This document shows positions 4,528-60,860 of a stretch of 64,000 bases of DNA, one piece after another. The notes below the pieces were generated by a model. The model did no database searches. It saw nothing but the letters and a program-made list of their open reading frames with translations, and was not told where the DNA came from. Position numbers and translations under genes: made by a program. Within the stretch, counting starts at the first letter, position 1; every line of letters begins with the position of its first letter. Source of the stretch: Lentisphaera araneosa HTCC2155 (GTDB taxonomy: Bacteria > Verrucomicrobiota > Lentisphaeria > Lentisphaerales > Lentisphaeraceae); NCBI RefSeq assembly GCF_000170755.1, contig NZ_ABCK01000012.1:1-64000 (forward strand), written 5' to 3'.

Positions 4528-4983
4528 TTGAGAGCAAGTGCTAGCCTTACATAAGCTCAAGGTAGCGTCAACAAGTGGCCTTAGGTGGCGCTTCGCTTAG
4601 GTGGAAAGAAACAGGAAAAATAGAGTCGCCTGTGTGGTAATACCTAGGAGCGCCGATTGCTTAATCCGCAATAATGAGCCTAGAGTCTTATTCGGTCGGG
4701 TTTCCAGCCCTTGAAATTGTGTGTGGACTTTATCCGTGGGACTTTGCCCCACACTGGCATAGTTCGGGCTTCCAGCCCTAGGACTGACCGAACAAGTTCT
4801 TATATTCTCAGGAAACTCTAAGCGACGCCCATAGGTATGGAGAAATAAATTTTCCAAAAAATTTCATTTTACTGTAAGATTATGGCTTAGCGCGATAATA
4901 CTGATCTAAGAATGAATAGGTGAGAGCTCGAACTCTTACTTGAATAATTTGATTTATTTAGTTTAAATAAGAAGGAAAATATT
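4528..4983. repeat. Intergenic mosaic of dispersed hairpin repeats
   Basis: There is no convincing gene. The stretch holds a copy of the 'GGTGGCGCTTCGCTTAGGT' word (near 4572-4600), a degenerate GCCGATT/AATCGGC element (near 4640), and hairpin words such as GTGGG-ACTTTG-CCCAC and GGGCT-TCC-AGCCC (about 4735-4780) that recur at 60.5 kb. An open frame on the minus strand across 4597-4857 is made of these repeats and is not a gene. An AAGAAGGA ribosome-binding site for the next gene lies just before 4984. Confidence 0.6.
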
Positions 4984-26767: not shown

Positions 26768-26797
26768 GTTTAATGCACCTGCGGCAACAAGTTGCTT

Positions 26798-27098
26798 AAG
26801 GTATCGCTTCGCTCAAGGTGGCGCACTTCGTGCTTAAGGTATCGCTTCGCTCAAGGTGGCGCACTTCGTGCTTAAGGTATCGCTTCGCTCAAGGTGGCGC
26901 ACTTCGTGCTTAAGGTATCGCTTCGCTTAGGTATCGCTTCGCTCAAGGTGGCGCACTTCGTGCTTAAGGTATCGCTTCGCTCAAGGTGGCGCACTTCGTG
27001 CTTAAGGTATCGCTTCGCTCAAGGTGGCGCTTCGCTTAGGTATCGCTTCGCTCAAGGTGGCGCACTTCGTGCTTAAGGTATCGCTTCGCTCAAGGTTT
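26798..27098 (+). repeat. 38-bp tandem repeat array
   Basis: About seven to eight units of a 38-bp word (AAGGTATCGCTTCGCTCA then AGGTGGCGCACTTCGTGCTT) follow the kinase gene; unit starts at 26798, 26836 and 26874 are exactly 38 bp apart, with shortened units later. Each unit holds a GCAC-TTC-GTGC hairpin. Isolated copies of the same word occur near 4575, 42590, 55225 and 60770. There are no unique spacers, so it is not CRISPR. The open frame within it is not a gene. Confidence 0.85.
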
Positions 27099-27220
27099 TT
27101 GAATCATGTAAAAACTAATGGGCTTGTGATAATAGCTGGGAGCGCCGATTTTTAATCGGCTCAAAACGCAGGACTAGGGGCAATACCTGGGAGCGCCCCA
27201 TTTCAATGCGGTATTAACTA

Positions 27221-29250: not shown

Positions 29251-31136
29251 GTGCGCCTGAGAGCGCACACAATCAGTGAGGTGAAAGTCCTCATCAACAA
29301 AGGCTGATTATGTTGTAGTCGAACCTAACTGCGTTGTCGTGAGGCGGGGTGGAGAGCAAGGCAAGGCGAAGCAGCAGTCCGTAGGATGACGAACTCGATT
29401 CGGCTTTATAGTACTAGCGAGCCTGCGATCGCGTGGCGAAGCTTGGAACGGAATGAAAATAATAATAAGGAGTAATTCTGAAGATCCTTTATGCTGAATA
29501 TCAGCGAGTAGAAAAGCAGTAGAGGAAGTCTATAGAGTGGTTGGAGACGGAATGCGGTGAAGGTTGTGTGACGTTAATTAGGGAGATCTGCATGTGCAGT
29601 GCAATAAGGCATGCAGGAGTCAGAGCTCTCATAGTAGCGAAGAAGGCGGTGAAAGCTGTTAGAGCGAAGGAGAGTAGGAAGATGAAACTGAGAAGAAAAG
29701 AATGAAGGAGTGAAACAATTGTCAGAGATGACTAAACATACATGGGAGCACTTAGGGCGCACCGAAGAAATTCGTGCGTGGGCCTCGACTTCAGTCTGGA
29801 CAGATCAGATGCTGGGAACTCTTGAAACAAGAGTTGAAGGTAAGAAATGGTATAGCTTAATAGATAAAGTAGCGCGAGAAGTAAACCTTATAGAAGCTTG
29901 GGAATCTGTTCGTGCAAACGGCGGGAGTCACGGGGTGGATATGGTGAGCTTGGATCGTTACGAATCAGAGCTAGAGCACAATACAAAGCAATTGATGAAG
30001 CAACTGCAGGCAGGGACTTACCTACCACAATGCGTTCGCAGGGTAGAGATCCCAAAAGCAGATGGTAAAACGCGTGCTTTGGGAATACCGACCGTGCGCG
30101 ATAGAGTTGTTCAGACTGCGCTCAAGAATGTTATTGAACCGATATATGATGTGGATTTTTCTACACAAAGTTTTGGTTTTCGTCCGCAACGTGGATGTAA
30201 AGATGCGCTTCGGCGTGTTCATCATCTACTTACGCAGGGACAGCTCTACGTCATTGATGCGGATATTCAAAGTTACTTTGATATGATACCGCACGACAAA
30301 CTCATGGAACGAGTCAAAGAGAAAATAAGCGATGGCAAGACCCTAGATCTTATAGAAGCTTTCCTCAAAGCAGGAATATTTGATGGGATCAAGGAGTGGG
30401 ATCCCGAGAAAGGGACTCCGCAAGGAGGCGTAATTAGCCCACTACTTGCCAATATTTACCTCAATGAATTCGACCACAGGATGACAGCGGCTGGCTTTGA
30501 AATCGTAAGGTATGCGGATGACTTTCTGGTGGTGTGTAATAATGCGAAATCGGCTAAGAGGGGCTTGCGCAAAATCAAGCGTTGGATGAAGGCTCATGGT
30601 CTGAACCTCCATCCCGATAAAACCCGAATTGCCGACATGAATCAGCAGGATGAGTACTTTGAATTTCTAGGTTATCACTTTGAGCGCTCGAAAAGAACGG
30701 GCAGGATAAATAGGTGGCCAAGAAAACAGAGTATGGCTAAAATGAAAGACACTGTGCGAAAGCATACGAGGCGTTGTAACTGGCAATCGGTAGAAGAAAT
30801 CATTAAAGGTCTCAGGCCTAGTCTCAAAGGTTGGTATGAGTACTTCAAACACTCAAATCGTTGGGCTATGCTCGAAGTTGATGCTTTCTTTCGTCGAAGG
30901 TTACGAAGTATTATCGCTAAGTACAATCGTAAGAAAGGTTCACATCGCTTTATAGATAACAGGAAATATACCAAGAAATACTTTGCAGAGCTAGGGTTCT
31001 TTTCACTGGAAGAGGCTTGGCTATTGGAATCTCAGTCTCTTCGGAGTAAGCATTGACCGGAGAGCCGTATGCGGGAGATCCGCACGTACGGTTCGGAAGG
31101 AGGGGAGGCTCCGCAAGGAGCTTTCCCTACCCTTAT
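29251..31136 (+). mobile_element. Group II intron with reverse transcriptase
   Basis: The 5' end GTGCGCC (29251) matches the group II consensus GUGYG. Domain V is visible at 31062-31094 (GAGCCGTAT...CGTACGGTTC, a 33-nt hairpin with the conserved ends), followed by a domain VI-like stem and a 3' end near 31136 (CTACCCTTAT). The reverse transcriptase lies in domain IV. The intron sits directly behind a GCCGATT/AATCGGC hairpin, like introns that target terminator-type stem-loops. The exact 3' boundary is less certain than the 5' one. The class was not determined. Confidence 0.85.
29710..31056 (+). CDS. ltrA: Group II intron reverse transcriptase/maturase
   Basis: The protein has up to 448 residues. 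Reverse transcriptase blocks are clear: 'GSHGVDMVSLDRYE', 'ADGKTRALGIPTVRDRVVQTALKNVIEPIYD', 'FGFRPQRGCKDALRRV', 'DADIQSYFDMIPHDKLM', 'GTPQGGVISPLLANIYLNEFD' and the catalytic 'VRYADDFLVV' (near residue 268). A maturase (GIIM) domain follows (~340-415, 'SVEEIIKGLRPSLKGWYEYFKHSN'). No HNH endonuclease domain is present after it. The start is ambiguous: GTG 29710 overlaps the AAGGAG site, whereas TTG 29719 has ideal spacing from it and ATG 29728 is also in frame. It promotes splicing and retrohoming of its intron. Confidence 0.9.
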   Translation: MKQLSEMTKHTWEHLGRTEEIRAWASTSVWTDQMLGTLETRVEGKKWYSLIDKVAREVNLIEAWESVRANGGSHGVDMVSLDRYESELEHNTKQLMKQLQAGTYLPQCVRRVEIPKADGKTRALGIPTVRDRVVQTALKNVIEPIYDVDFSTQSFGFRPQRGCKDALRRVHHLLTQGQLYVIDADIQSYFDMIPHDKLMERVKEKISDGKTLDLIEAFLKAGIFDGIKEWDPEKGTPQGGVISPLLANIYLNEFDHRMTAAGFEIVRYADDFLVVCNNAKSAKRGLRKIKRWMKAHGLNLHPDKTRIADMNQQDEYFEFLGYHFERSKRTGRINRWPRKQSMAKMKDTVRKHTRRCNWQSVEEIIKGLRPSLKGWYEYFKHSNRWAMLEVDAFFRRRLRSIIAKYNRKKGSHRFIDNRKYTKKYFAELGFFSLEEAWLLESQSLRSKH

Positions 31137-52231: not shown

Positions 52232-52978
52232 ATGAAATTATTTCTATCAATCATTTTTTGCCTAAGTGCACTAAGCTTTGCTGCAGAAAATGCCAGTAAG
52301 GGAGCCAAGAGCCCCATGGTGGTTGGTATTGTCGAAGCTTCTCAAGATGATCATGTGCTGGTGGTGACCAGGGACAAGTTTAAACGAAAGCTTTTATTTA
52401 ATGAGCAGAGTAAGATTATATACATTGGCTATGATGAAGAGGTCAAAGAAATCAAAGCCAAATGTGGCATTAGAGCTCAAGTCAAAGATGAAGTGATTTC
52501 AACCATCTATGTCACTCAGGATATTGGTGTGGATCAACCTGAGCCCACACCGGAAATGGTCAAGATGACAAGCCATGAGCTCTTTGCCGTCGCAGACTTA
52601 AACAAAAATGGTAAAATCAGCTATGTGGAGGTTTCCAAAACAATTAAATACTCCCTAAAACACGGTCCCATCACTTTCTCTAAAGTGGATTTAGATAAAT
52701 CCGGTTCTCTCAATCAAGGGGAATTCGAGGCCTTTCTTGCCAAAACTAAATGGTGGAAGATGTCGCGTAAGTCGCCTCAGGAATGGCTTGACTCAGCTGA
52801 TCAAGATAAGAACATGCTTCTCTCCAAGGAAGAACTGGCGATTCTTTTGGGGAGTACGGCTCATATCGAGATATTCTTTAGACGAGCCGATAGCAATAAA
52901 TCCGGCGATATCGACCTAAACGAAATTGCCGCTTTCATAGACACACTTATTTACCCCAGCCTAAAAAAACAAAGATAG
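52232..52978 (+). CDS. Exported protein with EF-hands, homologue of 33752
   Basis: The protein has 248 residues with a signal peptide. A small N-terminal beta domain ('MVVGIVEASQDDHVLVVTRDKFKRKLLFNEQS') and EF-hand loops 'DLNKNGKISYVE', 'DLDKSGSLNQGE', 'DQDKNMLLSKEE' and 'DSNKSGDIDLNE' match the four-EF-hand protein of locus 1 throughout. The third loop lacks the usual Gly at position 6 and may bind calcium weakly. AAGGA lies six bases before the ATG. Its position downstream of DUF1552/DUF1592 is conserved between the two loci. Confidence 0.8.
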   Translation: MKLFLSIIFCLSALSFAAENASKGAKSPMVVGIVEASQDDHVLVVTRDKFKRKLLFNEQSKIIYIGYDEEVKEIKAKCGIRAQVKDEVISTIYVTQDIGVDQPEPTPEMVKMTSHELFAVADLNKNGKISYVEVSKTIKYSLKHGPITFSKVDLDKSGSLNQGEFEAFLAKTKWWKMSRKSPQEWLDSADQDKNMLLSKEELAILLGSTAHIEIFFRRADSNKSGDIDLNEIAAFIDTLIYPSLKKQR

Positions 52979-53188
52979 ATTCTTAGAAAGTCTTATTTAA
53001 ATCATTAGTCGAATGCCGAAGGTATGACCTAATAAAGCCCAAGGTGTGAGCGGATGTGTAAAAAACATTTCTAATATCTAATAAGGGCTGAAAGCCCGTT
53101 AGATTATAGCGTGCACCGAAAGGTGCATGTATCTGTTGATTATAATGTTCACAGGGCTGAAAGTCCGGCACATACAAGTCCTTCTGTC

Positions 53189-53337
53189 GGTGCGTTGCAC
53201 CTTTCATACCTTCTCTTATTTAAACGTGCGGCTTTACCGCACGCTGGTATCTATCGGTGCGTTGCACCTTTCATACCTTCTCTTATTTAAACGTGCGGCT
53301 TTACCGCACGCTGGTATCTATCGGTGCGTTGCACCTT
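53189..53337 (+). repeat. 67-bp direct repeat, two full units plus a partial third
   Basis: GGTGCGTTGCACC recurs at 53189, 53256 and 53323 (67-bp period); each full unit contains the GGTGC and CGTGCGG hairpins. Confidence 0.85.
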
Positions 53338-53496
53338 AAATGTTATTTTTTACACAGACTCGTGAGCCTTGGGGCATATTTCTGGGGAAAGAGAGAATGC
53401 CGAAGGTATGAAATAGTTACTTATACCGTCCCGTTGGGACTCATTTTTTATCTATTCTGCCCACACCTAGCACTTGCGTGCTAGGCTGAGTTATGT

Positions 53497-53725
53497 CGTC
53501 CCCTTGGGACTCAAACTGAGTGCCGAAGGCATGACATAATATAGCCCAATGGCGTGAGCCTTGGGATAAGTATATGATTCCCACAAAGAGAATGCCGAAG
53601 GTATGATATAGGGATCTATGCCGTCCCCTTGGGACTCAAACTGAGTGCCGAAGGCATGACATAATATAGCCCAATGGCGTGAGCCTTGGGATAAGTATAT
53701 GATTCCCACAAAGAGAATGCCGAAG
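53497..53725 (+). repeat. 125-bp direct repeat, two copies
   Basis: 53497-53600 and 53622-53725 are identical by eye (about 104 bp), offset by 125 bp; each has GTCCC-CTT-GGGAC, TGCC-GAA-GGCA and a CCCAA/TTGGG hairpin. Confidence 0.85.
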
Positions 53726-53735
53726 CTATGGCATA

Positions 53736-60159: not shown

Positions 60160-60860
60160 TAGCTCGGGAGCGCCATAATAATTGAAAATGGACAATTGAT
60201 AATTACGGATCATGCTGGGAGCGCCGATTGTCAATCGGCATTCAAACTGTAGATCAATCTAAAAGTGCATTTAATATTCATCCACAGATAAACTCAGATT
60301 CACACAGATAATAATGAAATATATAAGGTGTGTATTAATCATTACATTATGCAATTTTCTTTGCTTAAAATGACTTATTTGAATATTTATAAGCGGAGCC
60401 ACCAAAGAGCACGAAAAAGCACAAAATTGCAGAATTCGCAATCATTAGAATAACATTATTTCGGTCGGACCTTCGGCCCTGGCTTTGTCCTTGATTTTTG
60501 TTTCGCGGGGCTTTGCCCCACGCTGGAATAGATCGGGCTTCCAGCCCTAAGGACCGGAGGCCCGTCCGATGATAGCATGCAGCGCCAGCTGCATGAACAA
60601 GTCGAAATTAAAGAGCAGGGCCGAAGGTCCGACCGAGTACAAAGTCGATATCAACCCTTCTATGTTGTGTAGTAAAGCCTTGAGCGAAGCGCTGCCTAAG
60701 AACGCAGTTATTTTAACTTTTATATCATTGCATACTCAGACCAATGGCGCTTGCACATGATAAAAAGATTAAACCTAAGCGAAGCGCTACCTAAGCGAAG
60801 TGCTACCTAAGCACGAAGTGCGCTTCCTAAGAAGGCTAATAAAAATCACAAAAAAATGGA
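60160..60860. repeat. Intergenic hairpin-word mosaic
   Basis: No gene is seen. It holds GCCGATT-GTC-AATCGGC (near 60221), 'CCACAGATAAACTCAGATTCACACAGAT' type block (near 60281), 'AAAGAGCACGAAAAAGCAC' (near 60404), and words shared with 4.7 and 53 kb: GGGGC-TTT-GCCCC (near 60507), GGGCT-TCC-AGCCC (60535), ATGCAGC-GCCA-GCTGCAT (near 60577), then 'CCTAAGCGAAGCGCTACCTAAG' words (60690-60830). Confidence 0.65.

What the first reader, a model, noticed from the sequence alone, without database searches (positions are those of the whole stretch)
53010..53735. Non-coding DNA written as a string of distinct mini-hairpin 'words'
At least nine different short perfect hairpins (4-8 bp stems; loops GAA, GAAA, GTT, CTT, TTGC, GTGA) follow each other in 700 bp. 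Other sets occur at 4.69-4.78 and 60.47-60.62 kb (GGGCT-TCC-AGCCC is shared) and, in simpler form, at 26.8 kb. Stem sequences differ while geometry is kept, which suggests selection or a mechanism for hairpin formation rather than copying of one sequence. I know of no named repeat class with this form.
Basis: seen in the sequence. Interest (0 to 1): 0.7.

Follow-up and report, generated by a model that had tools for sequence, protein, structure and literature searches.

The report
Hairpin arrays of a single-strand transposase
The string of small hairpins is real; it is made of scattered ends and stripped-down copies of a little-studied mobile element whose transposase probably acts on folded single-stranded DNA, and it includes the unexplained 'Acido-Lenti-1 RNA' of the Rfam database.

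Summary
Confirmed and largely explained. Window 53010-53735 holds 17 short hairpins; shuffles give 2.3 +/- 1.5. They form a fixed unit: hairpin A (8 bp), 12-nt linker, hairpin B (5 bp, 3-nt loop). Three of these units are Rfam Acido-Lenti-1 'RNA' (RF01687), which has no known function. The same words flank small Y1 (HUH) transposase genes elsewhere in the same genome. Those proteins carry the signature of TnpA-Y1 subclass 1.2, published as having no REP sequences.

Transposase and RF01687 co-occur in 145 genomes (19/3/6/117, p = 8.5e-16). Across 80 named loci from many phyla the ends are three inverted hairpins per side, B'-A'-C'-[tnpA]-C-A-B. Stems covary freely while spacing is kept. G.T/A.C bias shows that the strand opposite to Rfam's is the one that folds (103:30).

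The window holds a tnpA-less mini-element (53084-53268) plus tandem units. In Segatella copri the ~250-bp mini-elements are abundant and absent at orthologous sites of a close relative. TnpA cleavage of these hairpins is inferred, not shown. It is a new variant of the REP/REPtron kind.

The parts
53012..53044 (-). Degenerate unit: short hairpin ATGCC-GAA-GGTAT (53013-53025), linker and remnant of hairpin A'
   Evidence: CM hit 18.6 bits; hairpin
53084..53129 (-). Unit B'-12-A' (B' GGGCT-GAA-AGCCC 53085-53097; A' CGTGCACC-GAAA-GGTGCATG 53110-53129): left end of a tnpA-less mini-element. This unit is one of the 13 seeds of model R1
   Evidence: CM R1 55.1 bits (by construction); hairpins
53154..53166 (-). 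Hairpin C' (GGGCT-GAA-AGTCC), 24 nt inside of A'
   Evidence: spacing peak 23-25 nt across 80 loci
53189..53268 (+). Right end of the mini-element: C (GGTGC-GTT-GCACC, 53189-53201), 23 nt, A (CGTGCGG-CTTTA-CCGCACG, 53225-53243), 12 nt, B (53256-53268). With 53084-53166 it forms a complete B'A'C'-22 bp-CAB mini-element lacking tnpA
   Evidence: same anatomy around tnpA in 80 loci
53292..53335 (+). Tandem extra A-12-B unit (67-bp period)
53397..53440 (.). C' (ATGCC-GAA-GGTAT) - 18 nt - C (GTCCC-GTT-GGGAC): core of a second mini-element; left part truncated
53466..53511 (+). Acido-Lenti-1 unit: A CCTAGCAC-TTGC-GTGCTAGG, linker CTGAGTTATGTC, B GTCCC-CTT-GGGAC
   Evidence: RF01687, 55.5 bits (gathering 37); also a seed of R1
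53519..53565 (-). Acido-Lenti-1 unit inverted to the previous one: B' GTGCC-GAA-GGCAT, A' CCCAA(T)GGC-GTGA-GCCTTGGG
   Evidence: RF01687 41.1 bits; R1 34.5 bits, not a seed
53644..53690 (-). Tandem copy (125 bp) of the inverted Acido-Lenti-1 unit
   Evidence: direct repeat D1 97%
4731..4779 (+). Unit of a second set: A-like GTGGGACTTTGCCCCAC, linker ACTGGCATAGTTC, B GGGCT-TCC-AGCCC
   Evidence: read from sequence, B
60504..60548 (+). Unit of the second set: CGCGGGGCTTTGCCCCACG-CTGGAATAGATC-GGGCTTCCAGCCCT; differs at few positions from the unit flanking the tnpA at C38:5400
   Evidence: CM hit 19.3 bits, sequences
60550..60595 (-). Inverted partner unit (A CATGCAGC-TGGC-GCTGCATG)
   Evidence: CM R1 32.6 bits

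Best explanation
The array is a cluster of non-autonomous ends and mini-elements of a mobile element family whose autonomous form is B'-A'-C'-[tnpA]-C-A-B: a ~450-bp TnpA-Y1 subclass 1.2 gene flanked by three short hairpins on each side in inverted orientation. The repeated A-12-B unit includes Rfam Acido-Lenti-1. Shown: architecture, covariation, linkage to the transposase, folding strand, dispersal to intergenic DNA, and presence/absence of mini-elements at orthologous sites in Segatella. Inferred: that subclass 1.2 TnpA (HUH tyrosine nuclease) binds the hairpins on single-stranded DNA, probably at replication forks, and cuts and rejoins near them, so that units without their own tnpA are moved or amplified in trans, with tandem amplification building local arrays. 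Recognition seems to rest mainly on hairpin geometry and a short 5' foot (N-Y-A-R) of hairpin A, so stems can drift by compensatory change.
For: Excess of hairpins. RF01687 at three places in the stretch, >=124 hits in the genome. All four subclass 1.2 tnpA genes of the genome sit among hairpin sets, two with the sets seen in this window. Co-occurrence TnpA x RF01687 in 145 genomes 19/3/6/117, p = 8.5e-16, none in the five IS200-only genomes. Geometry-only scan of 80 named loci: 111 units vs 2 in shuffled, 103 within 1 kb of tnpA. Orientation within 120 bp: 39 and 33 in the expected inverted sense vs 7 and 3. Third hairpin 18-30 nt inside of A: 78/149 vs 19/149 control. Compensatory changes at all 13 pairs. 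G.T on one strand mainly. 0 of 105 units in ORFs, 91 expected; 81 of 105 lie >2 kb from a subclass 1.2 tnpA. Tandem autonomous + tnpA-less copy in L222. S. copri: 76 copies of one A hairpin, regular mini-elements, empty orthologous site.
Against: No biochemical or transposition assay. About a quarter to a third of the 80 loci show no unit by the models used (53/80 by CM; 59/80 by geometry). Six genomes have RF01687 without a detected TnpA, three the reverse. TnpA similarity does not correlate with stem similarity between loci (Mantel rho 0.10, p 0.09). A test for guide/target pairing of the foot gave no signal. In Segatella the elements carry an extra terminal motif that also bounds a different insert in G195, so another enzyme could take part there; absence in G195 could also be deletion.
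Confidence: 0.82

Rival explanations
1. Acido-Lenti-1 is what Rfam says: a small structured RNA, and the arrays are tandem copies of an sRNA gene.
For: RF01687 is in Rfam and was rated 'probably' an RNA. Covariation is real.
Against: G.T pairs occur on the opposite strand 103:30, so the Rfam strand is not the better-folding one. Units come in both orientations next to each other and flank a transposase symmetrically. Stems differ within one genome. Covariation does not tell RNA from single-stranded DNA.
Confidence: 0.07
2. They are domesticated or passive structural DNA (transcription terminators, nucleoid or supercoiling sites) unrelated to TnpA activity today; the transposase link is historical.
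For: Strictly intergenic. Low tnpA copy number, and tnpA almost absent from plasmids and phages, like the housekeeping-like behaviour reported for TnpA_REP (PMC8266576).
Against: No T-run after the hairpins (position counts). Mini-elements differ in presence between close species. Tandem and dispersed near-identical copies point to recent activity.
Confidence: 0.15
3. Another transposase with terminal inverted repeats spreads them as ordinary MITEs, and subclass 1.2 tnpA is one more passenger.
For: Segatella elements share a terminal motif (AAGTTTCGCAAGT) that also bounds a non-hairpin insert in G195.
Against: The hairpin set surrounds tnpA 1.2 at fixed distance in many phyla. No other gene was looked for systematically, but the units co-occur with this transposase family. 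No target duplication was seen at the one clean empty site.
Confidence: 0.08
4. Chance or mutational bias towards hairpins in AT-rich intergenic DNA.
For: None found.
Against: 17 vs 2.3 hairpins; strict geometry scan 32 vs 0-1 in shuffled genome sequence.
Confidence: 0.01

Closest known systems
Acido-Lenti-1 RNA (Rfam RF01687; Weinberg et al. 2010, PMC2864571)
   Same: The A-12-B unit is this motif; three sites in the stretch pass the gathering score.
   Different: Described as a probable RNA in Acidobacteria and Lentisphaerae, function little known; here it is the end structure of transposase elements, better folded on the opposite strand, with a third hairpin and an inverted partner. Many divergent versions fall below the Rfam threshold.
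REP sequences / BIMEs / REPINs and REPtrons of TnpA_REP (RAYT)
   Same: Intergenic palindromes in many copies, often as inverted pairs, flanking a Y1 transposase gene; several sets per genome each with its own tnpA; chromosomal rather than plasmid-borne.
   Different: Canonical GT[AG]G foot in only 4 of 149 units; two to three hairpins of different size per end; transposase of class 1 (subclass 1.2), not class 2.
TnpA-Y1 subclass 1.2 (Quentin et al. 2018, PMC6006769)
   Same: HUH, WQ and Y-x3-Q-x2-HH motifs and a conserved C-terminus.
   Different: The paper lists 'REP: no' for this subclass and mostly Cyanobacteria/Bacteroidetes; here hairpin ends and wide spread (PVC, Bacteroidota, Ignavibacteria, Calditrichota, Acidobacteria and others).
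IS200/IS605 insertion sequences (IS608, ISDra2)
   Same: Related enzyme by sequence (PDB 2xm3, 2a6m, 2vhg), ssDNA hairpins near the ends (from the literature).
   Different: Hairpins in inverted orientation at the two ends, three per end, variable stems; the strict scan finds no such units at five IS200 loci.

Membership tests
Acido-Lenti-1 (RF01687) | Covariance-model score above the gathering cut-off | tested here: met
   55.5, 41.1 and 41.1 bits vs 37 in the finding region
Acido-Lenti-1 (RF01687) | Transcribed structured RNA on the modelled strand | tested here: inconclusive
   No expression data; G.T/A.C bias favours the other strand 103:30
TnpA-Y1 subclass 1.2 | Y-x3-Q-x2-HH motif, WQ, HUH, about 150 aa | tested here: met
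   80/80 Y..Q..HH, 80/80 WQ, 78/80 HUH in named loci; own four proteins
Canonical REP | GT[AG]G tetranucleotide at the 5' foot of the hairpin | tested here: not met
   4 of 149 units; a looser NYAR foot in 96 of 149 vs 9.8% expected
REPtron-like arrangement | tnpA gene flanked by copies of palindromes that are dispersed in intergenic DNA | tested here: met
IS200/IS605 insertion sequence | Spread of near-identical full tnpA copies, incl. plasmids and phages | tested here: not met
   Four tnpA in own genome, the other three at 34-51% identity to L003; 2 of 72,556 plasmids, 0 of 50,697 phages
IS200/IS605 insertion sequence | Cleavage of ssDNA near hairpins by HUH tyrosine | not testable with these tools
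   Needs biochemistry
MITE-like non-autonomous derivative | Internally deleted copy keeping both ends of the autonomous element | tested here: met
   L222 tandem pair; S. copri mini-elements share the sequences next to C'/C with the tnpA copy L221
MITE-like non-autonomous derivative | Presence/absence at orthologous sites | tested here: met
   G195 lacks the L250 element cleanly; element also missing at L251, L255, L257 sites, half at L258
Intrinsic terminator | G+C hairpin followed by a run of T | tested here: not met
   Only the first base after B is T-enriched (83 of 149), then none

The most novel reading that the evidence does not exclude
Subclass 1.2 transposases read the shape and spacing of a three-hairpin end rather than its sequence, so each lineage can rewrite its stems by compensatory change; the orphan 'RNA' Acido-Lenti-1 is then a single-stranded DNA signal, not RNA, and a distinct multi-hairpin REP system spans many bacterial phyla.
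Probability: 0.45. Interest if true: 0.75.

Novelty: new variant of a known kind. Interest (0 to 1): 0.64.

Why it matters
It gives an unexplained Rfam 'RNA' family a concrete identity as DNA element ends, shows that a Y1 transposase subclass published as lacking REPs has elaborate hairpin ends, and explains why group II introns lie next to these motifs in this genome. It turns the question of how REP-like DNA spreads into direct assays with small proteins and oligonucleotides, and gives a recent case (Segatella) where movement can be followed.

Tried and rejected
Canonical REP tag (GTAG): rejected, 4/149. Terminators: no T-run. TnpA-stem co-divergence between loci: no significant correlation. 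Guide/target dinucleotide pairing of the foot with flanking CT/TT: no signal. Gelidibacter for empty sites: few units outside the tnpA locus, and inspection showed the L183 and L198 tnpA in the same flanks, so dropped. Plasmids and phages for empty sites: almost no hits. The 26.8 kb set: a 38-bp tandem repeat with no A-12-B unit, not explained. Literature: Acido-Lenti-1 appears in three papers and RF01687 in two; the two Acido-Lenti-1 papers opened give no mechanism. Only an open-access library was searched, so an unheld description cannot be excluded.

Full report
OBSERVATION. The stretch 53010-53735 carries 17 non-overlapping hairpins with stems of 5-8 bp; 200 dinucleotide shuffles give 2.3 +/- 1.5, maximum 7. 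Part of the series is tandem duplication, a 67-bp and a 125-bp repeat. The stretch lies downstream of an ORF ending at 52978 with no ORF of 100 aa in it.

WHAT THE HAIRPINS ARE. They are not independent words. They follow a fixed grammar: hairpin A (7-9 bp, sometimes bulged, loop 3-5), a linker of 12 nt, hairpin B (5 bp, loop 3). Rfam calls three of these units Acido-Lenti-1 (RF01687) above its gathering score; the genome has at least 124 hits (only 150 candidates were scored, so this is a lower bound). A covariance model from 13 own-genome units chosen away from tnpA genes (R1; two of its seeds are the window units at 53084 and 53466) finds 132 hits in 43 arrays in 1.66 Mb. None of 105 full units lies in an ORF of 120 aa or more, 91 expected. 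Pairs show compensatory changes: 11 of 13 pairs in the seed set, 13 of 13 in 136 sequences from other genomes, with no shuffle reaching the covariation score. The second alignment was fitted to the structure, so its counts lean that way; the geometry scan below does not depend on it.

THE LINK TO A TRANSPOSASE. The genome has four small Y1 transposase genes whose flanks are full of such hairpins, each with its own set. The set around C1:416938 contains the words of 53.0-53.7 kb. The set around C38:5601 contains those of 4.7 and 60.5 kb; the unit at 60504 differs from that at C38:5400 at few positions. The proteins match Pfam Y1_Tnp and IS200/IS605 models and solved IS608/ISDra2-type transposases. 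Their motifs (HUH, WQ, Y-x3-Q-x2-HH) are those given for TnpA-Y1 subclass 1.2, a subclass reported without REPs and without IS features (PMC6006769). In 145 genomes of the phylum, subclass 1.2 TnpA (bits > 60) and RF01687 co-occur: 19 both, 3 TnpA only, 6 RF01687 only, 117 neither; Fisher p = 8.5e-16; the five genomes with IS200-type hits only have no RF01687. Related genomes are not independent, so the p-value is nominal.

ANATOMY ACROSS PHYLA. A scan of genome contigs gave 80 named subclass 1.2 loci from Bacteroidota, Lentisphaerae, Planctomycetes, Verrucomicrobia, Kiritimatiellota, Ignavibacteria, Calditrichota, KSB1, Acidobacteria and others. Hairpin density is 7.5 per kb within 500 bp of the gene and 1.3 per kb at 2.5-3.5 kb. 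A scanner that uses geometry only finds 111 units against 2 in shuffled loci, 103 of them within 1 kb of tnpA. The nearest units face each other: 39 downstream on + and 33 upstream on -, against 7 and 3 in the other sense; the median gap is 52-53 bp on each side by the covariance model. A third hairpin C sits inside A at a spacing peaking at 23-25 nt (78 of 149 units, control 19 of 149), and hairpin positions peak at about 10, 45 and 75 bp on both sides of the gene. The autonomous form is therefore B'-A'-C'-[tnpA]-C-A-B. Stem sets are more alike within a locus (0.71) than after permutation (0.52; 0 of 1000), but stem similarity does not track TnpA similarity between loci.

WHICH STRAND FOLDS. 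When a pair is not Watson-Crick it can be G.T on one strand and A.C on the other. On the Rfam strand the A.C form dominates in three data sets, 54:21, 36:7 and 13:2, so the complementary strand, read B-linker-A, is the one kept foldable. On that strand the four bases before hairpin A fit N-Y-A-R in 96 of 149 units (9.8% expected), GT[AG]G in only 4. This resembles the GTAG foot of REPs, in which the last two bases matter most for cleavage-site choice in one studied system (PMC8266576), but it is not that tag.

THE WINDOW. 53084-53268 is a complete tnpA-less element: B', A', C', then 22 bp, then C, A, B. A tandem A-B follows (53292-53335), then the core of a second element (C'-18 nt-C at 53397-53440) with A-B at 53466-53511, and the inverted unit 53519-53565 with its 125-bp tandem copy. 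The same thing is seen more clearly in L222 (Rubritalea), where a tnpA element is followed by a copy with tnpA replaced by about 38 bp.

MOBILITY. In Segatella copri (L221) one A hairpin occurs 76 times, reversed control 0, many copies in pairs 124-127 bp apart. They form a uniform mini-element whose inner borders repeat the sequences next to C' and C in the tnpA copy. Joined flanks of the L250 copy match a congener (G195) in one piece, with 97% and 93% flanking identity, so about 250 bp are present in one and absent in the other. At three further sites (L251, L255, L257) G195 has no such element, and at L258 only one half. No target duplication is obvious. The elements there also share an outer terminal motif that in G195 bounds a different insert, so the exact ends, and whether TnpA alone moves them, remain open. 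Insertion in one and deletion in the other cannot be told apart from two genomes.

MECHANISM. Shown: structure, strand, linkage, dispersal, presence/absence. Inferred from the HUH-Y1 family: TnpA cuts and joins single-stranded DNA next to the folded hairpins during replication, and acts in trans on units that lack tnpA. Tandem arrays may arise by repeated insertion beside existing units or by ordinary recombination; the data do not decide.

GROUP II INTRONS. The genome has 29 group II intron hits. Of 12 on fetched contigs, seven have a 5' exon ending in a B-type hairpin plus G-R-TATA; in four of these the 3' exon continues with the rest of the linker and hairpin A. These introns thus sit in the linker, in the sense of the folding strand. 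The window's own intron follows another hairpin. This is independent support for hairpin B folding on that strand, if these introns read a folded sense strand as class C introns do (general knowledge, not tested here).

NOVELTY AND LIMITS. No paper found in the library joins Acido-Lenti-1 to a transposase; a 2026 paper still states that little is known about it (PMC13298647). I rate this a new variant of the REP/REPtron kind, not a new kind. The main gap is biochemistry.

Noticed in passing
window 29251-31136 (RF00029 at 31060-31136), and 28 more places in the genome: Group II introns; 7 of 12 examined sit directly after hairpin B plus GRTATA, inside the Acido-Lenti-1 linker (4 with the rest of the unit on the 3' side); the window copy follows hairpin GCCGATT-AAC-AATCGGC.
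   Followed up: partly
window 26790-27100: Tandem repeat AAGGTATCGCTTCGCTCAAGGTGGCGCACTTCGTGCTT with small hairpins but no A-12-B unit; full unit found only here in 1.66 Mb. Unexplained.
   Followed up: partly
G000, L005-L008 and further Y1 places: Twelve weaker Y1_Tnp matches in longer frames (189-352 aa), probably class 2 TnpA_REP-like; no A-12-B units at the four checked. Their own repeats were not sought.
   Followed up: partly
L321 (G195), G195:C1 about 979.6 kb: At the site of an S. copri mini-element the relative carries another insert bounded by the same terminal motif (CAAGTTTCGCAAG ... GCGAAAGTTCAG) but without the hairpins: different inserts with like ends at one site.
   Followed up: no
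L221 4780-4920: Four tandem copies of a ~30-bp piece (ACGCCCTGAGGTTTCATTCGCGATACCCCAC) at the left border of the tnpA element in Segatella copri.
   Followed up: no
G000:C4:253991-254377: Six tandem 68-bp units with a stem (CCTAGGGTC...GACCCTAGG) unlike those around the four tnpA genes: a possible orphan set whose transposase is lost or on unread DNA.
   Followed up: no
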